From Odiellus spinosus (taxonomy: Eukaryota > Arthropoda > Arachnida > Opiliones > Phalangiidae): 64,000 bases of DNA. The first letter of the stretch is position 1, and every line of letters begins with the position of its first letter. The translations under genes were made by a program, and so were the position numbers. The stretch covers positions 7,557,424 to 7,621,423 of the forward strand of contig OY987231.1 in the NCBI GenBank assembly GCA_963920705.1. The letters run 5' to 3'. The notes under the pieces are model-generated. The model saw only the letters and a list, made by a program, of their open reading frames with translations, was not told the DNA's origin and did no database searches. Positions 10,644 to 60,990 of the stretch are shown here, piece after piece.

Positions 10644-13600
10644 TTAGCGAATTAAACCCCTCGCGAATAACGAATCGTTTAAAGAGTGTAGAATTTGTAT
10701 TTGTTGATCAGCCTTCAAGAGATAAACTTGTTGCAGTAATTTCTGAGGATTCGGGGCTCTGCAACATAATAATGCCACATAAATTCAGGCTGAAATTGTA
10801 TTGCTATTTCCTTATTGGTAGCTATTCCCTTATTGACAGGGAAGAGAATTCTTTTGAAAACAGTTAATTGGGCCTTGGCAGGTTTATCAAGCACTCAATT
10901 CGGTTCATCGAGTACTCGATTCGGTTCATCGAGTACCGATTTTTTGTTTGTTTACCGAGTACTCATTTTATACTCCATAAATATATTGAAAAACAATAGA
11001 ATACTTCACCTAATAAAACTGTGGATGTATACGTTGACAAACGTGGCCATCAAGTATTGACAGTCGAATCTGTCAACGATTCCACCATGACCAGGTATAA
11101 TATCCCCGAAATCTTTGACTTTGAAAGCTCGTTTGAAACCGCTAGCGAAGAAACCGCCAAAAGGTCCAATAATCGAGCTGAAGAGTGATAATGACAAGGA
11201 ATGAAACATAAATGGATAGAGGTTCAACGTCTTTGGTAGTCCAATCTAAAAAGAAAGGGATCAAAATATCGGCGATAGATTAACGATACTGGGCTACAAA
11301 ATCTTACAATTCCGCAGAAAACTTGAATAGAAGTTGGAAAGCTGTATTCCTGTAACTGGAACAAGGGTGATGGAGAGCAATCCAGTGACATTGTCCCCAA
11401 TTCCTCAGAATATTCCAACGGACAAACGAAGTACTTGAAATTGCACATGAAATGCGATATCAACATTCCAAAGACGACGGTGGAAAATCCTCCGCCGATA
11501 AAACCTTCCCACGTTTTTTTTGGCGAGAGTTTAATCAAGGGAGTTTTTCCGAAGAAAAATCCAAAGATGTATGCCATGATATCGTTACAAATAATCATAG
11601 ATACGGGAACGATGAACCAAATCAAGCCTTCGAATAAGTTTTGCATGATTAGGTACGATTGTGTCACCACAATTAAAAGAGTCACGTGGGTCCAAGCAAA
11701 CTGAAAAAAACAAATAAAAGTTGCTCGCAATTACAACAAGCAGACATGTCGTTTTTGTCTCAAAATATCCAACAAGACTTGGGATTTTGGTAGAAATTTC
11801 AGGGAATTTTGATAGGGATTTTGGATTTTGGATCGAGATTTTGGATTTTGGATCGAGATTTTGGGTTTTGGATCGAGATTTTGGGTTTTGGATCGAGATT
11901 TTGGGTTTTGGATCGAGATTTTGGGTTTTGGATCGAGATTTTGGGTTTTGGATCGAGATTTTGGGTTTTGGATCGAGATTTTGGGTTTTGGATCGAGATT
12001 TTGGGTTTTGGATCGAGATTTTGGGTTTTGGATCGAGATTTTGGGTTTTGGATCGAGATTTTGGGTTTTGGATCGAGATTTTGGGTTTTGGATCGAGATT
12101 TTGGGTTTTGGATCGAGATTTTGGGTTTTGGATCGAGATTTTGGGTTTTGGATCGAGATTTTGGGTTTTGGATCGAGATTTTGGGTTTTGGATCGAGATT
12201 TTGGGTTTTGGATCGAGATTTTGGGTTTTGGATCGAGATTTTGGGTTTTGGATCGAGATTTTGGGTTTTGGATCGAGATTTTGGGTTTTGGATCGAGATT
12301 TTGGGTTTTGGATCGAGATTTTGGGTTTTGGATCGAGATTTTGGGTTTTGGATCGAGATTTTGGGTTTTGGATCGAGATTTTGGGTTTTGGATCGAGATT
12401 TTGGGTTTTGGATCGAGATTTTGGGTTTTGGATCGAGATTTTGGGTTTTGGATCGAGATTTTGGGTTTTGGATCGAGATTTTGGGTTTTGGATCGAGATT
12501 TTGGGTTTTGGATCGAGATTTTGGGTTTTGGATCGAGATTTTGGGTTTTGGATCGAGATTTTGGGTTTTGGATCGAGATTTTGGGTTTTGGATCGAGATT
12601 TTGGGTTTTGGATCGAGATTTTGGGTTATGGATCGAGATTTTGGGTTTTGGATAAAGATTTTGGGTTATGGATCGAGATTTTGGGTTATGGATCGAGATT
12701 TTGGGTTATGGATCGAGATTTTGGGTTATGGATCGAGATTTTGGGTTATGGATCGAGATTTTGGGTTATGGATCGAGATTTTGGGTTTTGGATCGAGATT
12801 TTGGGTTTTGGATCGAGATTTTGGGTTTTGGATCGAGATTTTGGGTTTTGGATCGAGATTTTGGGTTTTGGATCGAGATTTTGGGTTTTGGATCGAGATT
12901 TTGGGTTTTGGATCGAGATTTTGGGTTTTGGATCGAGATTTTGGGTTTTGGATCGAGATTTTGGGTTTTGGATCGAGATTTTGGGTTTTGGATCGAGATT
13001 TTGGGTTTTGGATCGAGATTTTGGGTTTTGGATCGAGATTTTGGGTTTTGGATAAAGATTTTGGGTTTTGGATAAAGATTTTGGGTTTTGGATAAAGATT
13101 TTGGGTTTTGGATAAAGATTTTGGGTTTTGGATAAAGATTTTGGGTTTTGGATAGAGATTTTGGGTTTTGGATAGAGATTTTGGGTTTTGGATAGAGATT
13201 TTGGGTTTTGGATAGAGATTTTGGGTTTTGGATAGAGATTTTGGGTTTTGGATCGAGATTTTGGGTTTTGGATCGAGATTTTGGGTTTTGGATCGAGATT
13301 TTGGGTTTTGGATCGAGATTTTGGGTTTTGGATCGAGATTTTGGGTTTTGGATCGAGATTTTGGGTTTTGGATCGAGATTTTGGGTTTTGGATCGAGATT
13401 TTGGGTTTTGGATCGAGATTTTGGGTTTTGGATCGAGATTTTGGGTTTTGGATCGAGATTTTGGGTTTTGGATCGAGATTTTGGGTTTTGGATCGAGATT
13501 TTGGGTTTTGGATCGAGATTTTGGGTTTTGGATCGAGATTTTGGGTTTTGGATCGAGATTTTGGGTTTTGGATCGAGATTTTGGGTTTTGGATCGAGATT

Positions 13601-16193
13601 TTGGGTTTTGGATCGAGATTTTGGGTTTTGGATCGAGATTTTGGGTTTTGGATCGAGATTTTGGGTTTTGGATCGAGATTTTGGGTTTTGGATCGAGATT
13701 TTGGGTTTTGGATCGAGATTTTGGGTTTTGGATCGAGATTTTGGGTTTTGGATCGAGATTTTGGGTTATGGATCGAGATTTTGGGTTATGGATCGAGATT
13801 TTGGGTTATGGATAAAGATTTTGGGTTTTGGATAAAGATTTTGGGTTATGGATCGAGATTTTGGGTTATGGATCGAGATTTTGGGTTATGGATCGAGATT
13901 TTGGGTTTTGGATCGAGATTTTGGGTTTTGGATCGAGATTTTGGGTTTTGGATCGAGATTTTGGGTTTTGGATCGAGATTTTGGGTTTTGGATAGAGATT
14001 TTGGGTTTTGGATCGAGATTTTGGGTTTTGGATCGAGATTTTGGGTTTTGGATCGAGATTTTGGGTTTTGGATCGAGATTTTGGGTTTTGGATAAAGATT
14101 TTGGGTTTTGGATAAAGATTTTGGGTTTTGGATAAAGATTTTGGGTTTTGGATAAAGATTTTGGGTTTTGGATAAAGATTTTGGGTTTTGGATAAAGATT
14201 TTGGGTTTTGGATAAAGATTTTGCGTTTTGGATAAAGATTTTGCGTTTTGGATAAAGATTTTGGGTTTTGGATAAAGATTTTGGGTTTTGGATAAAGATT
14301 TTGGGTTTTGGATAAAGATTTTAGGTTTTGGATAGAGATTTTGGGTTTTGGATAGAGATTTTGAGTTTTGGATAGAGATTTTGGGTTTTGCATAGAGATT
14401 TTGGGTTTTGGATAGAGATTTTGGGTTTTGGATAGAGATTTTGGGTTTTGGATAGAGATTTTGGGTTTTGGATAGAGATTTTGGGTTTTGGATAGAGATT
14501 TTGGGTTTTGGATAGAGATTTTGGGTTTTGGATAGAGATTGAGATTTTAATGTGATTTTGGTATTTGAAGATTATAACTGATTAATATACCAATGAAAAC
14601 TGTCTCATGTAGTATTTTTTGACGAGGCTCAGCACGAAAAATACAAATCCAATAATGTAGAGACAAAAGGAGATGAATCTATGATAAGTTATTAACGGTC
14701 TCAACATGTCCTGCAAAAATGATATCAAAGTATTAATATTTACTAAGTATTTTTTCTTTCAGTGAGGAATGGAAACGTACAGCTCTGCTTATCAGCATCC
14801 CAAAATAGTCAACCATACTCTCGCCGTAGAAGAAATAGTTCGAGGTGAGTAGAAAATACCAAGATAGGGAACGGAACCAAGGTAGACCGTGAATTCGATA
14901 AACGGCGTAGCCTATCGAAATAATTTCTTGAAAGCATTTAACTTGAACCAGCAAGGTCTGTAACGCAAGTTCATTTATTTTAATTCTAAGAAGATTGAAA
15001 ATAAAATCTAGCTTCTCTTACAATGAACATGAGCGCGAGAGGGCCGAGCCATATGAGAAATCCAAATCCAGAGATCATAAACAATGAGAATATACCGCGT
15101 ACACAATTGTTTTTTTATGAGAATAACGCTAATTTTAAATTTTTTTATGCAAACTACCTCTTTGACAAACTAGATAGAGCGGTGTCTAACGCTTCGGTAG
15201 TTTTATCAGAGGCCTGGGGTAATACTTTAGTTAATTCCTCCACATTGGATTCATCAGGGATTCTATCATCTTCGGAATCAGCCGTGTCAGCTCCTTTATC
15301 CGAAATATTATCCTTCGTAATAATGGATTCCTCCGGTTTAAGCTACAATTGTTTTATTATAATAGACATTTCCTGATCAAAATCAAATTTAGGACTACAG
15401 ATATGTACAAGTGTACTTCTGGATTACATCTGCTGATTTATTGACAATGATTACTTAATATTACGATTAATTAACTTTGGTATTTAGAAATATAAAAATT
15501 ATCTCCATTGAAAGGGACTATCTGCGATTTTCAAATCCCCTTTAAAGTCGACTTCTGGTCTAACTTAGCAGTCGACGTTATACAAAACAAACTGTACAGT
15601 CAAAGCTAGGCGGCGTGCGTAAGGGAAGAGCATTTTAAAGGGGCAAGTTTCAGAGCAGATAGGGCCTTTAAATAGACTATCCGTGATTTTTAAAGCTCCC
15701 TTTAAAGTCGTCTTCTTTCCTTGCTTAGCAGACGACGTTTACCACAAAAATTGTACAGTCAAAGGTCAAAGCTAGGTGTGCATAAGGAAAGATGAAAAGG
15801 AAAAAATTCTAGAGCAGATAGTCCCTTTAAAAATGAGCTAAAGTAGGTGTGTAACTTTTTCTATCTCTTATCATACATCTTCTTACACGATTTAGATTGA
15901 AGCCTATGAAGTTCTGTCAAGCCATTCAAGTTTAAAGAAAAAAACACTCAATCAGCTAAAAGTTGGCTATCCTCTCAGACCTCTATCTCTCTCTCTCTCT
16001 TACTGTCAATTATAGCTTGCTATGATTAAATTTATACAAAACTTTTTAACTTTATCAACGAAATATTTGGTAATTACGATTAATAAGCTATAAGTAAGAC
16101 TGAATAAAGAAACCATTGCTTGTTTACCTGAGTTACCTCAGTAGCCTCGACCTGCGACTGATCCTTGACTGGACGTTTGCGGACCTCAGACAT
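10644..16193 (-). CDS. CdsA: CDP-diacylglycerol synthase (phosphatidate cytidylyltransferase)
   Basis: Eight coding exons: 16137-16193, 15158-15342, 15022-15128 (5' border uncertain), 14781-14957, 14591-14710, 11308-11700, 11010-11245 and 10644-10758, about 462 residues. The enzyme condenses phosphatidic acid with CTP to CDP-diacylglycerol in the ER for phosphatidylinositol synthesis. The N-terminus is acidic and soluble ([12 protein letters not shown]). Several membrane segments follow ([35 protein letters not shown]). Conserved words are [44 protein letters not shown] and [16 protein letters not shown]. The CDS-family signature is complete in exon 7: SGFKR, four residues, KD, then PGHGG and DRFD. 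The terminus PNPQKLLQQ...RGLIR fits the family. The start [10 protein letters not shown] follows an acceptor at 16200, and a 5'-UTR donor lies at 16440. The exon 2/exon 3 junction has a one-base frame conflict. Confidence 0.96.
11821..14540. repeat. 20-bp minisatellite, 136 units, filling a CdsA intron
   Basis: The unit is TTGGGTTTTGGATCGAGATT on the plus strand. From 11821 to 14540 every unit keeps exact 20-bp register, so there are 136 copies with no insertion or deletion, only substitutions. The main variants are GATAAAG, GATAGAG, and TTATGG for TTTTGG. They occur in blocks in the same order twice: GATCGA, a TTATGG patch at about 12,630-12,780, GATCGA, GATAAA, GATAGA; then the same again with the patch at about 13,760-13,890. 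The array lies in the intron between the exons ending at 14591 and starting at 11700. The transcript strand is C-rich and the plus strand is G-rich. Confidence 0.98.
15513..15826. mobile_element. Tandem dimer of a ~157-bp TTAA MITE in CdsA intron 1
   Basis: The ends are AGGGACTATCTGC and its mirror GCAGATAGTCCCT, followed by TTAA (15827-15830); the left flank reads TTGA. A back-to-back join at about 15,655-15,675 (GCAGATAGGGCCTTTAAATA then GACTATC) splits it into two similar halves. Both contain the words TTTAAAGTCG, TTAGCAG-CGACGTT, CTGTACAGTCAAAG or TTGTACAGTCAAAG, and AGCTAGG. It is non-coding. Confidence 0.7.
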
Positions 16194-30483: not shown

Positions 30484-30740
30484 CGGTTTGCGTCCGCTTG
30501 CGCATTTTCATTTGCGCAGTAGCCATTTGCGCAGTTCGCCATTAGAGCTGTAAACAAGAGGGACAGGCTAGTTAGAGTGATTAACTAACATAACCTAACA
30601 TAACCTGCAAATGAACACTGCGTAAATGGAAAAAGCGCAAATGGGAACTGCGGAAATGGAAACCCGAGGAAATGGAAAACTGCGCAAATGAAAAACTGCG
30701 CAAAAGGAATTGCGCAAAAGAGAACTGCGCAATTGGAACC
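30484..30740. repeat. Foldback minisatellite of GCGCAAATGG-type units
   Basis: A short array in one orientation (CATTTGCGCAGTAGCCATTTGC, about 30,495-30,540) and a longer one in the opposite orientation (AAATGGAAAAAGCGCAAATG and variants, 30,608-30,740) flank a ~60-bp centre with AACCTAACATAACCT. The unit is about 16-17 bp. A sister locus is at 60,738-60,990. Confidence 0.75.
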
Positions 30741-39601: not shown

Positions 39602-40690
39602 AAAATGGTTTTAAAATCTCAAAATATCTCACGAAATTTGTTCAAAAAACTATCCCCAAAATGGTTTTAAAATCGAACCCCAAAATTGTTTTAAAATCTC
39701 TCCCAAAATGGTTTTAAAATCTCTCCCAAAAATGGTTTGAAAATTCTCAAAATATCTCACAAAATTGGTTTTAAATTCTATCCTAAAAATGGTTGTCAAA
39801 TCTCTCCCAAAAATGGTTTTCAAATCTCTCCCAAAAATGGTTGTCAAATCTCTCCCAAAAATGGTTGTCAAATCTCCCAAAAATGGTTGTCAAATCTCTC
39901 CCAAAAATGGTTGTCAAATCTCTCCCAAAAATGGTTGTCAAATCTCTCCCAAAAATGGTTGTCAAATCTCTCCCAAAAATGCTTGTCAAATCTCTCCCAA
40001 AAATGGTTGTCAAATCTCTCCCAAAAATGGTTTTAAAATTTCTCCCAAAATTATTTTAAAATCTATCCCCAAAATGGTTTTTAAAATCTATCCCAAAATA
40101 GTTTTAAAATCTATCCCCAAAATGGTTTTCAAATCTCCCCCAAAAATGGTTTTCAAATCTATCCCAAAATGGTTTTAAAATCTCTGCCAAAATGGTTTTA
40201 AAATCTCTCCCAAAATTATTTCAAAATCTCTCCAAAAATGGTTTTAAAATCTCTCCCAAAAATGGTTTTAAAATCTCTCCCAAAAATGGTTTTAAAATCT
40301 CTCCCAAAAATGGTTTTAAAATCTCTCCCAAAAATGGTTTTAAAATCTCTCCCAAAAATGGTTTTAAAATCTCTCCCAAAAATGGTTTTAAAATCTCTCC
40401 CAAAAATTGTTTTAAAATCTCTCCCAAAATGGTTTTAAAATCTCTCTTAAAATGGTTTTAAAATCTCTCCCAAAAATGGTTTTAAAATCTCTCCCAAAAA
40501 TGGTTTTAAAATCTCTCCCAAAAATTGTTTTAAAATCTCTCCCAAAATGGTTTTAAAATCTCTCTTAAAATGGTTTTAAAATCTCTCTCAAAATGGTTTT
40601 AAAATCTCTCCCAAAATGGTTTTAAAATCTCTCCAAAAATGGTTTTAAAATCTCTCTCAAAATGGTTTTAAAATATCCAAATATATCCCA
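39602..40690. repeat. 22-23-bp minisatellite, about 45 copies (locus 1)
   Basis: The unit is TGGTTTTAAAATCTCTCCCA plus AAA. A block near 39,785-40,015 reads TGGTTGTCAAATCTC, whereas the rest reads TTTTAAAATC. Unit length shifts between 22 and 24 by changes in the A run. The many overlapping open frames on both strands (such as KSLPKMVLKSLPK) are translations of the repeat. Confidence 0.96.
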
Positions 40691-41168: not shown

Positions 41169-42071
41169 AGGACAAGTCTCATTTAGTTTAACATTTTAGT
41201 AGAACTCATGAGACTAAAAAATCGTCTAAAAATTCTTTATTTTTAACGAAACAGTTATTTACATAATAAACTATAATAGCTAAATTGAGATCATTTCTTC
41301 ACTTTGATTTTTTAATTTTAATTAAATACATTGAAACCGTCGTCTGATTTAAATGGGTCAATCAGAGGCTCGCGCCCTCGAATGGCCATTATCCTTATTG
41401 CTACAAAAGGGTGACACGCTAGCCTCTTTTAAAACTTTTCAATTTAAAGTGTTAGCCCGCTCCACACGTTTGAGGTGATAGCAAAAACCCATGAAAATGT
41501 TCTAGAATTTTCAAGATTTTTCTAGACTTTTCTAGAATTTTCTAGAATTTTCAAGATTTTTCTAGAATTTTCAAGATTTTTCTAGAATTTTCAAGATTTT
41601 TTGTAGAATTTTCAAGATTTTTCTAGACTTTTCTAGAATTTTCAAGATTTTTCTAGACTTTTCTAGAATTTTCAAGATTTTTCTAGACTTTTCTAGAATT
41701 TTCAAGATTTTTCTAGACTTTTCTAGAATATTCAAGATTCTTCTAGACTTTTCTAGAATTTTCCAGAACTTTCCAGGAAAGACCTTTCTAGCGCTTTCAA
41801 GCACTAAACCCCTCCAGACTCTTCTACAACATTCTTGGAAAAGCTACGGACGTACGGACATTGTAAATTAATAGTGTTTGATTATGCTATATCCGGTTTA
41901 GTTTAAAAAACTAGAAGATTTGGGAATAATTATATATTTTTAATCATCTTTTTAATTTCATTCGTGGCTCGATATTGAAGCTCCTATTCCCATGCATTTT
42001 GTCAATGCTCTCAGTGAGATTTCTTTGAATATATTGGTAACCAAAAACGGGAATTTCGTGGGAGTTGTCCT
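41169..42071. mobile_element. Possible TTAA element carrying the 41.5-kb array
   Basis: TTAA|AGGACAAGTCTC at the left and TTGTCCT|TTAA at the right (42072-42075) bracket 903 bp. The left terminal 13-mer AGGACAAGTCTCA also occurs mirrored at 45,275-45,288, so the true partner end is uncertain. It contains the minisatellite at 41,505-41,785. Confidence 0.45.
41505..41785. repeat. 30-bp array of heat-shock-element-like pentamers (locus 1)
   Basis: The main unit is TTCTAGAATTTTCAAGATTT plus TTCTAGACTT. Read in 5-bp steps it alternates TTC and GA(A/T/C): TTC-TA-GAA-TT-TTC-AA-GAT-TT-TTC-TA-GAC. Many windows therefore contain the full consensus TTCnnGAAnnTTC. The 77-codon minus-strand frame here is repeat translation. 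Confidence 0.85.
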
Positions 42072-43033: not shown

Positions 43034-44776
43034 TACGGTCACGGTAACATTTCTCAATCAATTTGAAACGGTAAAATCAACCCAATATTCAAATCGCCAG
43101 GAATTGTTTTAAGAGCCCGGTGTTCACTCATTATCTTTACAAATGGATTTAGTGTAACTTCATCTATCGATTGTTGAAATCGAATCTGTATGAAACTGGT
43201 TCCCGAAGCAGTTTCGAGAAATCGAATCAATTCGATTAGACGAAAGATTGATTTTTGTTCACATGACTGTAGCAAAATGTTTTGAAACGGTTTAAATCAA
43301 TTCCAAACATACGTTCTCGGGCTTCACAAATTAGTTCTTTGTAAAATGGAATTTTTTTTATTTTTTTATTTGTCTCGCGTCGAATTGTAATTATCAGCGA
43401 ACACACTGCGAAACTTGTTAAACTAGTTCTTAAAGAAGAAGTCTCGTGATATTTATTTTTCTACTTTATTAATTAGTGTTCTTAATAACAGTTGGCAGAT
43501 TGAATAATGCCTATTTTAACGAAAAGAAATTGATAAAAATCACTAGAATTAGAGCTTCATTTTCCGTTTAAATAGTTTCGTTATTTGATAGAACTCCAGA
43601 TTTAACATTTACCCATTTTGAAAATGCGCTTGTCACTCAAGTAAAATTGTTTAAATATCGTTAATCAAGTCCCCAAAAAGGTTTTAAAATCTATCCCAAA
43701 AATGGTTTTAAATCTCACCCAAAATGGTTTTAAAATCTCTCCCAAAACAGTTCTAAATCCTACTAAAAATGATTTTAAAAATCTATCCCAAATGGATTTA
43801 AAATCTATCCCCAAAATGGTTTTAAAATCTATCCCCAAAATGGTTTTTAAATCCCTCCCAAAATGGTTTTAAAATCCCTCCCAAAATGGTTTTAAAATCT
43901 CTCCCAAAATGGTTTTCAAATCTCTCCCAAAATGGTTTTTAAATCTCTCCCAAAATGGTTTTAAAATCTCTCCCAAAATGGTTTTAAAATCTCTCCCAAA
44001 ATGGTTTTTAAATCTCTCCCAAAATGGTTTTAAAATCTCTCCCAAAATGGTTTTAAAATCTCTCCCAAAATGGTTTTTAAATCTCTCCCAAAATGGTTTT
44101 TAAATCTCTCTCAAAATGGTTTTAAAATCTCTCCCAAAATGGTTTTAAAATCTCTCCCAAAATGGTTTTAAATCTCTCCCAGACCTGACTTTACCTGACA
44201 CCATAATCCTTTTAGCGATATTTAAACAATTTTACTTGAGTGACATAAAGGCTAGGTCTAAATGTTAAATCTGGAGTTCTGTCAAATAACGAAACTATTC
44301 GGTGGTTAAAGGGAAATTGAAGCCTAAATAGTCATTTTTTCTATCAATGCCTTTTCGTTAAAATGGGCTACAATCACCAAAAAAATTATGAAAACTTATT
44401 CTAGCTAAAAAGAACCGTTCAAAACGGCTAAATATTTTTTATGTACAATAAATTGACGTATTTAGTTAGCGAGATGTTAGCTGCGTTCATACTAGGCCTT
44501 GGAATCGATTTAAACCGTTTCAAAACGTTTCGTTAGAGTCGTGTGAATATAGTCAACCGTCTTTTCACGAATCGAGTTGATTCGATTTCTCGAAACTGCT
44601 TCGGGAACCAGTTTCATACCGATTTGGTTTTAACAACCGATAGATGAAGCTACAATAAATCGATTTATAAAGATAATGCGTGAACAAGTGACGCTTGTAA
44701 CGATTATCGTCGATTTTAATATCGGTTTGCTGATTTTACCGTTTCAAATCAATTAAGAAATGCTAATGTGACCGTA
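43034..44776. repeat. 1.74-kb inverted duplication with a minisatellite in its loop
   Basis: The left arm (43,034-43,670) and right arm (44,190-44,776) mirror each other in several ordered blocks: TACGGTCACGGTAACATTTC; GAAACTGGTTCCCGAAGCAG (with the right-arm mirror at about 44,598); ATAGTTTCGTTATTTGA; and ACTCAAGTAAAATTGTTTAA. Segments between blocks have diverged. The loop is the array 43,675-44,185. The outer blocks are copies of the repeat at 36,803-37,060. Confidence 0.82.
43675..44185. repeat. 22-23-bp minisatellite (locus 2), same unit as 39.6 kb
   Basis: About 22 copies of TGGTTTTAAAATCTCTCCCA plus AA, the same unit as the array 3 kb to the left but mostly with one A fewer. It lies precisely between the arms of the 43,034-44,776 inverted repeat. 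Confidence 0.95.
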
Positions 44777-57559: not shown

Positions 57560-59214
57560 GTATTAAGCTTGGGAATATTGTCGATACTGCAGGCAAAAAT
57601 TGAGGATTTCTTTTATTATACCAAAATATCCCTACATATAGTTTCGTAATGTTGAAGGACAAGTCTCTTGCATTGTTTTAGAGCGTGCTTTAGTTAATAT
57701 AATATAATAGAAAAGCTTTTTTTTTTATTGTAAAGTTACTACGTTACTGTTTTTGCTCGAAGATCTGTGAATTATATTTCATATATTTTGTTGTATTTGA
57801 TGACGAAGAATGTGAGAAAATGTGATTAATGAAAAGTAGGTCCTTCTGGATTAAGTGTTTTCACGAAAAAGACCGCGCCAAACCAATATCCGTATCACCC
57901 TATTTTCCAGTAAATGTCAAAGGGAATGTAATACCATCTTCAGGCGAGGCGTAAGTAGCTGTGGTTTAATCAGATTTTACCGAGGTTTACGTCTCTCAGT
58001 TCAATAAACTTTGGTTAATTTTGATTAAATCTCGGTTAAATCTGATTAAACCGCGGCTAAATACCCCTCGAAGGGTATAACGGTTTTAGGCAAAAATATT
58101 GTTACGACTTTAGCTAAACATCAAATCGTAGTTTGCTATATTTTGTTGTCCTTACGCTAAAAAGGCATCGAGTCTTTGAATCGACTTAGACTGATCCATC
58201 CAGGTGTCCTTTATTTGTGTCGGGAGAAGAGCAGGGAATTATCTATTTTGTTGTTTATCAATTTCACTAATTGGTTCCTATTTTCGAGACTTTGTTCATT
58301 ATTTCCACCCAATATCGCTTGAGTATTTGACTAATTTCATTTTTATTTGAGGCGTTTTTGGTTGGGGCACTTGTGCACGAGGGGCTAATTACTCTCGGAT
58401 TACGCGTAATCATTTTAGCACCGTTAAAAGCAAGGATTTTAAAGATTAAACGTAATCGCTTTAGTACAGTCATACAACCTGTACACTGTCTTGCAATTCT
58501 TTCCAAAATAGACTAGCATTTTTTTTTCTAAAATTAACTTATTAAAAACAACATTAGTCTGTTTTTTGAAAACCTTTTATTGATTTCTAGCGTAATCTAT
58601 CTTTAATCTTGATTTAAAGGTCAATTTAGATGAGACCGACCCTTTAATATTGATTTCGTTGAAGCTGACTTTGTTTTCCATCGTTCTTGTTAGCTTTTGG
58701 GGTCATTTACGTGACACGGTACATACGTAAAACGCGCGTATACAGCCTTTGCTTGTTGCACGCTTCGAATATGACGAGTACCTTTTTATGCAAAGTTAAA
58801 GGTCTATATAGCTTAGAATACTATTTTAACTTGAAGGGGAAATAACTGGAACCTAAGGTTTTTTAAATGTTGAAAATACTGGATGTCCAATGGTTTTTCA
58901 CGAAAGTAGGTTATTTCAAGGTTTATTTAGACAATGCGTTTTCTGTTGCCATACTTCAATATGTACGTCTTTAGAATCAATATTGAGGAACATTACAAAA
59001 AACGAGCGATTCAAGATTCTGTCTCAGTTTTGCCGTTTTATAATCTCCTCTATAATTGAAAGAGAGTTAATTGAGGTTTATATATTAGCTTAATTTAGTT
59101 TTAATTAACGGATTATATGGTACTATCAAAAACCCGTGAAAAGTCACGGGACACATAGAATGCAAGATTTTGAAGCTGAAATTTCTCGAATAGAATTTTT
59201 TTTTTAATTAACTT

Positions 59215-59310
59215 TATAGAATTTTCTAGAATGTTCTAGAATTTTCTAGGATGTTCTAGAGTTTTCTAGGATGTTCTAGAATTTTTCTGAATTTTCTAGA
59301 GTTTTGTAAA
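59215..59310. repeat. Short HSE-like array preceding the main one
   Basis: TTCTAGAATGTTCTAGAATT, then GGA and GAG variants, continue in 5-bp phase. One stretch gives five consecutive good pentamers, TTC-TA-GAA-TG-TTC-TA-GAA-TT-TTC. Confidence 0.85.
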
Positions 59311-59355
59311 GAATGTTATTATAAAGTTTGGTTTTTTTCAATATTTTTATTTTTT

Positions 59356-60451
59356 CCCGAAAGTTTAGTTTGACCCTCTTCCGCTTCTGGGTGTCCTAGA
59401 ATGTTCTAAAATTTTCTAGAATGTGCTAAAATTTTCTAGAACGTTCTAAAATTTTCTAGAATGTTCTAAAATTTTCTAGAATGTTCTAAAATTTTCTAGA
59501 ATGTTCTAAAATTTTCTAGAACGTTCTAAAATTTTCTAGAACGTTCTAAAATTTTCTAGAATGTTCTAAAATTTTCTAGAATGTTCTAAAATTTTCTAGA
59601 ATGTTCTAAAATTTTCTAGAACGTTCTAAAATTTTCTAGAACGTTCTAAAATTTTCTAGAATTTTCTAAAAATTTCTAGAATGTTCTAAAATTTTCTAGA
59701 ATGTTCTAAAATTTTCTAGAATGTTCTAAAATTTTCTAGAATGTTCTAAAATTTTCTAGAATGTTCTAAAATTTTCTAGAATGTTCTAAAATTTTCTAGA
59801 ATGTTCTAAAATTTTCTAGAATGTTCTAAAATTTTCTAGAATGTTCTAAAATTTTCTAGAATGTTCTAAAATTTTCTAGAATGTTCTAAAATTTTCTAGA
59901 ATGTTCTAAAATTTTCTAGAATGTTCTAAAATTTTCTAGAATGTTCTAAAATTTTCTAGAACGTTCTAAAATTTTCTAGAATTTTCTAAAAATTTCTAGA
60001 ATGTTCTAAAATTTTCTAGAACAGTAACTTAACATTACCCCAGAAATTTACTGATTTATAAGTTTTATCGAAAGTAAGATTTTCGTGCAATTTACGAAGA
60101 AAAAACAAACATTGTAGCAAAAATGTTTATTTCCTTTTTTTTTACAATAAAATTTCTTACGAAATTTCGATAATTAATTGAATTAAAACTAGACCGGTTA
60201 AAACAAAAGAAAACCTTTTCCTTTGTTTATTACAGTACTTAGTTCGAAATAGTAAAACCGGTAGTAAATACGGTAATAAACATTTTTTTTTTTTTTTATT
60301 CATCGTTTAAACAATTTTAAACTTAAGTTATATGTAGCGTGTAAAGGAAAATGATGGTGGTTTTTGGTGATGCGAAGCGAACTAGATAAAAAAACGCAGG
60401 GTCGTAGCGGAACACCCAGAAGCGGAAGAGGGTCAAACTAAACTTTCGGGG
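59356..60451. mobile_element. Foldback element enclosing the HSE-like array
   Basis: CCCGAAAGTTTAGTTTGACC...CTTCCGCTTCTGGGTGT at 59,356-59,396 is mirrored by ACACCCAGAAGCGGAAGAGG...ACTAAACTTTCGGGG at 60,411-60,451. Weak mirror similarity continues outward (ATATTTTTATTTTTT / AAAAAATTAAAATAT). The loop holds the 20-bp array and about 390 bp of AT-rich DNA. Confidence 0.75.
59401..60020. repeat. 20-bp array of heat-shock-element pentamers, 31 units (locus 2)
   Basis: The unit ATGTTCTAAAATTTTCTAGA stays in exact 20-bp register for 31 copies. In 5-bp steps it reads TTC-TA-GAA-TG-TTC-TA-AAA-TT, so three of every four pentamers fit the alternating nGAAn/nTTCn rule. Each unit holds one perfect TTCnnGAAnnTTC. 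C-for-T variants (GAACGTTC) keep the consensus. HSF trimers bind this three-pentamer element in animals; binding here is inference. Confidence 0.92.
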
Positions 60452-60737
60452 AAAAAAATTAAAATATGGAAAAAATATTATATTATTAGACTTACCCCAA
60501 AAATCAAAATAAGGAAACGTTTTTCGCGTCAATGGAAACAAAATAAACTTAATCGTGTCGCAATGTAGCCAATAGTCACGATTTAAAGTCAGCTTAAACT
60601 CTATTTCATTGACATTAAAATTCCAAAGTTAATGCTAGAAGGATAGTATAACGTGTTTTTGAGAAACAATTTTCAGATAACCATAATAATAATCGAAATA
60701 ATTATCATAATATTAATAAAAATCATAAAGCTTATGT

Positions 60738-60990
60738 TCCAATTGCGCAGGTCCCATAAGCGCAGTTTTTCAGTTTCGCAGTTTTCCATTTCCGCAGATT
60801 TTGGGTTAAGTTAGATTAGGTTAGTCCCTACGAATAAATTAATGCTAAACTGCACAAATGGAAAACTGCGCAAATAGGAAAATGCGCAAATAGGAAAATG
60901 CGCAAATGATAAACTGTGCAAATAGCAAAACTATGCAAATGGAAAACTGCACAAATTGAAAGCTTCGCAAATGGAAAACTGCGCATGTGA
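60738..60990. repeat. Foldback minisatellite of AAATGGAAAACTGCGC units
   Basis: A left arm in one orientation (AATTGCGCAGGTCCCATAAG...TTTTCCATTTCCGCAG) and a right arm in the other (AAATGGAAAACTGCGCAAAT and seven variants) flank a centre with TTAGATTAGGTTAG. The design is the same as at 30,484-30,740. Confidence 0.75.

What the first reader, a model, noticed from the sequence alone, without database searches (positions are those of the whole stretch)
59401..60020. A 620-bp uninterrupted lattice of heat-shock-element pentamers
Seen: 31 exact 20-bp units whose 5-bp phase never breaks, giving about 124 consecutive pentamers, three quarters of which fit the alternating TTC/GAA rule; every unit contains a perfect TTCnnGAAnnTTC. 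Substitutions (C for T in GAACGTTC) tend to fall in the free nn positions. Known: HSF trimers bind three inverted nGAAn units, and human satellite III arrays recruit HSF1 to nuclear stress bodies. Inference: this locus could be a high-capacity HSF sink, a stress-responsive promoter or a source of stress-induced satellite RNA. It sits inside a foldback element, so it may be present in many copies genome-wide.
Basis: partly seen in the sequence, partly recalled or inferred. Interest (0 to 1): 0.75.

Follow-up and report, generated by a model that had tools for sequence, protein, structure and literature searches.

The report
Jumping gene packed with heat-shock sites
The repeat is part of a dispersed rolling-circle transposon (Helitron) whose body is made of sequences that fit heat-shock-factor binding sites, a pattern known from Caenorhabditis worms and seen here in what looks like an arthropod genome.

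Summary
The array is real: 59396-60021, 31 units of 20 bp in unbroken 5-bp phase; 91 of 123 pentamers and 29 of 31 units fit the heat-shock-element (HSE) grammar. The foldback reading fails: the flanking 62-64-bp inverted repeat was found nowhere else in the genome. The array belongs to a dispersed Helitron-type family with 5' TCAAACACTATTAATTTACAATGTCCGTACG and a 3' hairpin plus TTTTTGCTAG, mostly with A before and T after. The copy here keeps its 3' end (59122-59150) and lacks its 5' end; a second copy lies at 41477-41881. In the own 443-Mb genome the 3' end (at most one mismatch) occurs 194 times (control 2) and a perfect 4-site HSE 1,674 times (control 69). All 20 loci fetched with a 5'-end query carry HSEs downstream. 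One chromosome has a 20-kb HSE satellite. The genome encodes HSF; its mitochondrial gene order is arthropod-like. HSE-laden Helitrons that bind HSF-1 and respond to heat are published for Caenorhabditis and were reported as possibly restricted to that genus. HSF binding here is inferred, not shown, and no autonomous partner was linked. Whether the case is convergent, inherited or horizontally acquired is open.

The parts
59396..60021 (-). Amplified HSE lattice: 31 units of 20 bp; strand given is that of the Helitron
59213..59305 (-). Less uniform 10/20-bp lattice segment of the same element, nearer its 3' end
   Evidence: 4 HSE triplets
59122..59150 (-). Helitron 3' end: hairpin CCCGTGA-CTTT-TCACGGG, then TTTTTGATAG|T (family TTTTTGCTAG|T)
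   Evidence: 2 mismatches to the family 3' end; coordinates
59151..59212 (-). Subterminal 3' region (...TTTCAGCTTCAAAATCTTGCATT...), similar in other copies (e.g. L014, L015)
   Evidence: listings
59333..59394 (+). Left arm of a local inverted repeat, lying between the two lattice segments
   Evidence: no further genomic copy
60412..60475 (-). Right arm of the local inverted repeat, 94% identical to the left arm
41477..41881 (-). Second copy of the family in the window: 5' end at 41846-41881 (0 mismatches), lattice about 41496-41835, 3' end decayed at 41477-41499

Best explanation
The array is the internally amplified body of a non-autonomous Helitron whose body is a 10-bp-register lattice of alternating nGAAn/nTTCn heat-shock elements. 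Shown here: recurring Helitron-type ends, a preference for A before and T after them, many dispersed ends, HSE-rich bodies in the 20 loci fetched with a 5'-end query, different repeat units (20, 21, 30, 40 bp) in different copies, and an HSF gene in the same genome. Inferred: short lattice elements of about 160-250 bp are moved in trans by a Helitron Rep/helicase. Slippage or rolling-circle replication then amplifies local 10-bp multiples, giving arrays of about 0.3-3 kb and a 20-kb satellite. On stress, HSF trimers bind the lattice and can drive transcription of the element and of nearby genes, as shown for Caenorhabditis Helitrons. This one copy lacks its 5' end, so it is probably immobile, but its 29 three-site HSEs could still bind HSF.
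For: Ends: of 31 arrays tested (up to 12 mismatches allowed), 16 had a 5' end and 19 a 3' end nearby, 13 both; in all 13 a 5' and a 3' hit lie on the same strand (one, W41, also has a weak 5' hit on the other) (mononucleotide-shuffled 260-base flanks hit 24 and 46 times in 1240). Of 37 copies with a 5' end, 26 have an exact TC and 23 of those are preceded by A. Of 20 3' ends, 11 have CTRR and 10 of these are followed by T, though the search motif itself held CTAGT. Genome counts: 3' end with at most 1 mismatch 194 vs 2 for the reversed control; 5'-end query 43 matches from 40 scored of 256 candidates; 4-site HSE 1,674 vs 69. The 20 best other loci all have at least one HSE triplet 60-600 nt past the 5' end (1-19 each); control loci have 2 in 64,210 bp. 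HSF DNA-binding domain: one locus, 68.4 bits. Helitron Rep domains: 150 matches, several in long open frames. In 37 aligned copies HSE core positions are better conserved than spacers (A/T .88 vs .81, P .036; G/C .85 vs .73, P .003).
Against: This copy has no 5' end, and its 3' end reads ATAG, not CTAG. Nine of 31 arrays showed neither end (two of them, L007 and L021, have a 5' end). The 3' stem shows 0 compensatory changes and 33 of 140 cells are unpaired. Of two loci fetched by an exact 3' end, one (L077) has no HSE triplet and one (L076) a single cluster. No Rep gene with these ends was found: none of the 12 fetched Rep loci has a 5' hit at 8 mismatches or fewer within about 1.5 kb; L047-L051 share one weak 3' hit (4 mismatches) that I take for chance. 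No Rep lies within 150 kb of a listed 3' end (62 of 150 Rep matches and 100 of 194 ends compared). Core G/C is not better conserved than the TA spacer in the arrays (P .37), and core A/T is not significant in the 21 copies chosen by the 5' end (P .11). No binding or expression data. Copies are related, so the P values are too small.
Confidence: 0.72

Rival explanations
1. Neutral minisatellite: a Helitron (this rival does not dispute that part) whose body happens to be a 10-bp palindromic repeat (TTCTAGAA). The HSE match is a by-product of the palindrome and HSF plays no part.
For: Helitrons with internal tandem repeats are common (recalled). The TA between TTC and GAA is about as conserved as the core G and C (.80 vs .82, P .37). 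Many other unrelated tandem arrays fill the window.
Against: Core A/T exceeds spacer A/T in 26 of 31 arrays (P 5e-5) and core exceeds spacer in the 37 aligned 5' regions. The GAA-TTC spacer is free (top base .43 and .47) while TTC-TA-GAA is kept, which is the HSF preference (recalled). 1,674 vs 69 four-site HSEs.
Confidence: 0.33
2. Foldback (inverted-repeat) transposon carrying the array.
For: 62-64-bp arms, 94% identical, flank the array.
Against: The search with 60330-60480 found only these two arms in the genome, while the array and the Helitron ends recur elsewhere.
Confidence: 0.04
3. Chromosomal satellite or HSF sink like human satellite III, independent of transposons; the Helitron ends near arrays are insertions into it.
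For: A continuous 21-bp HSE array of about 20 kb on C8 without recognised Helitron ends.
Against: In 29 of 31 profiled arrays the lattice is 1.25 kb or less (which looked at 1.8 kb each; L007 is 2.8 kb), dispersed, and where both ends were found they agree in strand. Elements of about 160-250 bp have ends and HSEs but no long array (L055, L059, L070).
Confidence: 0.08

Closest known systems
HSE-bearing Helitrons of Caenorhabditis (Helitron1_CE, Helitron2_CE, HelitronY1, Y1A, Y4; Garrigues et al. 2019, PMC6927752: passages and sections 9 and 13 read)
   Same: Mostly non-autonomous Helitrons with dense HSEs, eight HelitronY4_CE copies with over 100; dispersed through the genome.
   Different: Host here is arthropod-like, whereas the paper found HSE enrichment in Helitrons only in Caenorhabditis among the genomes it scanned and said it may be restricted to it. 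HSF-1 binding and heat response are shown there, not here. Sequence homology of the ends could not be compared.
Heat-induced Helitron1_CE RNA (PMC6765114: passages read)
   Same: Helitron with multiple HSEs.
   Different: Heat induction and HSF-1 dependence were measured there; no data here.
Human satellite III arrays and nuclear stress bodies (recalled; review PMC9032817 seen in a search listing only)
   Same: Tandem repeats proposed to recruit HSF1.
   Different: Different unit; here carried by a transposon; pericentromeric position not tested.

Membership tests
Canonical Helitron | 5' end TC | tested here: met
   26 of 37 copies start exactly with TC; absent from the copy at 59122-60021, present in the copy at 41477-41881
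Canonical Helitron | 3' end CTRR after a hairpin | tested here: met
   11 of 20 3' ends have CTRR, found with a motif that held CTAG; 194 vs 2 genome matches of the 3' end. This copy has ATAG and a perfect 7-bp stem; overall 107 of 140 stem cells paired, 0 compensatory changes
Canonical Helitron | Insertion between A and T | tested here: met
   A before an exact TC in 23 of 26; T after CTRR in 10 of 11, T being in the search motif; no empty sites seen
Canonical Helitron | No target-site duplication; empty sites | not tested
   No relatives of this genome are held
Canonical Helitron | Autonomous partner with Rep/helicase and the same ends | tested here: inconclusive
HSE-bearing (Caenorhabditis-type) Helitron | Clusters of HSEs inside Helitron copies | tested here: met
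   20 of 20 loci of the 5'-end query; exception L077
HSE-bearing (Caenorhabditis-type) Helitron | HSF occupancy and heat-induced expression | not testable with these tools
   No ChIP or RNA data
Foldback transposon | Multi-copy long terminal inverted repeats | tested here: not met
   Only the two arms of this locus found
Human satellite III-like stress satellite | GGAAT-type repeat unit (recalled) | tested here: not met
   The unit is AATGTTCTAAAATTTTCTAG
Human satellite III-like stress satellite | Pericentromeric position | not tested
   Centromeres of this assembly are not known to me

The most novel reading that the evidence does not exclude
A Helitron family in an arthropod has, independently of or by transfer from the Caenorhabditis case, built its body from heat-shock elements and seeded thousands of high-valency HSF sites, including a 20-kb satellite, so that heat stress could both mobilise the element and rewire or titrate the host heat-shock response.
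Probability: 0.35. Interest if true: 0.85.

Novelty: new member of a known kind. Interest (0 to 1): 0.6.

Why it matters
HSE-loaded Helitrons were reported as possibly restricted to Caenorhabditis (PMC6927752, section 9). A second, distant lineage would show that capture of the heat-shock regulator by Helitrons is a recurrent or transferable strategy. It gives a system for testing convergence against horizontal transfer, and the 20-kb array would allow a direct test of HSF titration by repeats.

Tried and rejected
Foldback family: rejected. Hairpin covariation as support: none found. RNA genes: no Rfam family at gathering score and no tRNA found in the window. Pfam on five of the 23 listed ORFs: RCC1-type and CTP_transf_1 matches in two, nothing in three; a PDB search of the CTP_transf_1 exon found nothing. 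HSP70 genes as a positive control for host HSEs, and the TTC-first 4-site count: not completed (90, 91, 94, 96, 97, 100, 102, 104). Literature searches bearing on HSE-rich Helitrons outside Caenorhabditis (PMC open-access library only): no title or abstract start in the listings showed one; most listed papers were not opened. Read: PMC6927752 (passages, sections 9 and 13), PMC6765114 and PMC13104882 (passages), PMC9148306 (abstract and outline). First end-search script timed out. Species: mitochondrial gene order ND2-COI-COII-ATP6, read by eye from translations, is arthropod-like by recalled knowledge; no species was named.

Orientation (GAA more intact than TTC) was wrong for several loci and was replaced by the ends themselves. 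Rows dropped: one search left out L001, L009, L010 (same place as the window) and L033/L034 (satellite); one search left out these window duplicates and L029, L037, L038, L052, L053; one search left out L001, L009, L010, L029, L037, L038 and repeated sequences.

Full report
Observation. The array at 59396-60021 has 31 units of 20 bp and no indels. In one phase 91 of 123 pentamers are nGAAn or nTTCn, and none in the other four. TTCnnGAAnnTTC spans 29 of 31 unit starts. Of 11 substitutions among the units, 10 are in nn positions. Shuffling the unit 400,000 times gives 3 or more fitting pentamers in 101 cases. The window holds 33 HSE triplets at 59205-60021, 13 in the second lattice and 6 elsewhere, one of these at 59178 inside this element; five control arrangements of the same letters give 0 in this element and 0 to 12 elsewhere.

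Surroundings. The 62-64-bp inverted repeat (59333-59394 and 60412-60475) is real, but a genome search returned only these two arms. The array itself matched at many dispersed places in the 443-Mb genome: 105 matches from 40 scored of 408 candidates. I fetched these places and compared flanks.

Ends. Flanks share a 5' end TCAAACACTATTAATTTACAATGTCCGTACG and a 3' end CCCGTGATTTTTCACGGGTTTTTGCTAG followed by T. Of 31 arrays, 16 had the 5' end, 19 the 3' end, 22 either and 13 both. In all 13 a 5' and a 3' hit agree in strand; W41 also has a weak 5' hit on the other strand. Mononucleotide-shuffled flanks hit 24 and 46 times in 1240. Up to 12 mismatches were allowed, so some hits are marginal (L008 and L012 at 12). 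L007 and L021, counted as neither, have 5' ends. Among 37 copies, A precedes TC in 23 of 26 with an exact TC. Of 20 3' ends, 11 have CTRR and 10 of these are followed by T, but the motif used to find them held CTAGT; the stem has 107 of 140 cells paired and no compensatory changes. TC...CTRR ends, a 3' hairpin and A|T insertion are the recalled hallmarks of canonical Helitrons.

This copy. On the minus strand it runs from a missing 5' end, through the 31-unit array (60021-59396), a 90-bp stretch with the left inverted arm, a less uniform lattice (59305-59213) and a subterminal region, to the hairpin and TTTTTGATAG|T at 59150-59122. A second copy at 41477-41881 has an exact 5' end.

Copy number and HSE content. 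The 3' end with at most one mismatch occurs 194 times, its reversed control 2 times. A 106-base 5'-end query gave 43 matches from 40 scored of 256 candidates; this query also reaches the first lattice bases, which favours copies with HSEs there. The best 20 other places were fetched. All 20 have at least one HSE triplet 60-600 nt past the 5' end (1 to 19 each). Their upstream flanks, only about 100 nt, have none in 19; L073 has 7, with further 5'-end matches there. The better control is 2 triplets in 64,210 bp of other loci. Perfect GAAnnTTCnnGAAnnTTC occurs at 1,674 places against 69 for the reversed pattern; how many lie in Helitrons was not counted, because only the first places are listed. 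Short elements of about 160-250 bp (L055, L059, L070) are in lattice phase through most of the body. Two loci fetched by an exact 3' end differ: L076 has one HSE cluster and L077 none, so similar ends also carry other bodies.

Amplification. Copies differ in repeat unit: 20, 21, 30 or 40 bp among those examined. On C8 a 21-bp array of about 20 kb (slice of 20,175 bp) holds 841 non-overlapping four-site HSEs; no family ends were recognised beside it, so its origin from the family is inferred.

Constraint. In 31 arrays the core A/T positions average .916 and the tail-to-tail spacer A/T .803 (26 of 31 arrays, P 5e-5), whereas core G/C (.823) does not differ from that spacer (P .37). In 37 aligned 5' regions core exceeds spacer for A/T (P .036) and G/C (P .003). 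In the 20 copies of the 5'-end query plus the window copy, A/T is not significant (P .11) and G/C is (P .004). The copies are related, so these values overstate the evidence.

Host and partners. The HSF DNA-binding domain is found at one locus; by eye neighbouring frames resemble the HSF coiled coil (recalled comparison). Helitron Rep domains gave 150 matches from 150 scored of 184 candidates. None was linked to these ends in the parts read; a weak 3' hit shared by L047-L051 is taken for chance. The mitochondrial contig C286 has ND2-COI-COII-ATP6 on one strand, arthropod-like by recalled knowledge.

Known work. In C. elegans, HSF-1 binds HSEs in Helitrons, eight HelitronY4_CE copies hold more than 100 HSEs, and the association was reported as possibly restricted to Caenorhabditis (PMC6927752, passages and sections 9 and 13). 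Helitron1_CE RNA rises on heat shock and depends on HSF-1 (PMC6765114, passages). [quoted passage not shown]).

Conclusion. The locus is a copy of an HSE-lattice Helitron that lacks its 5' end. Its family membership rests on tested ends; HSF binding, heat induction and any sink effect are inferences from sequence grammar and from the Caenorhabditis precedent.

Noticed in passing
G000 C8:4396586-4416760, approximate (L033-L035): 20-kb continuous 21-bp satellite TTTCCAGAATATTCTAGAATT with 841 four-site HSEs.
   Followed up: partly
G000 C1:3.4-10.3 Mb: Another recurrent 4-site HSE, GAAGCTTCTAGAACTTTC and close variants, unlike the Helitron consensus; two of its places lie about 7.8 kb from Rep remnants at C1:9127941 and C1:9244192. 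Could be an hsp gene family or an HSE upstream of an autonomous element.
   Followed up: no
L077: Element with similar Helitron ends but a non-HSE body, possibly captured sequence.
   Followed up: no
window 59306-59395 and 60412-60475: Inverted repeat found nowhere else, with one arm wedged between two lattice segments; origin unexplained.
   Followed up: partly
window 11817-14540: 136 copies of a 20-bp unit GATTTTGGGTTTTGGATCGA beside a CTP_transf_1 (CDP-diacylglycerol synthase-like) exon at 11224-11730.
   Followed up: no
window 39645-40674 and 43672-44181: Related 24/23-bp arrays AAAATCTCTCCCAAAAATGGTTTT.
   Followed up: no
window 30607-30738, 60847-60985 and L004:3057-3191: Shared 15/16-bp repeat AAACTGCGCAAATGG at separate places, probably another dispersed element.
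   Followed up: no
G000 C17: Several mitochondrial COI copies (numts) and many Helitron Rep matches on one contig.
   Followed up: no
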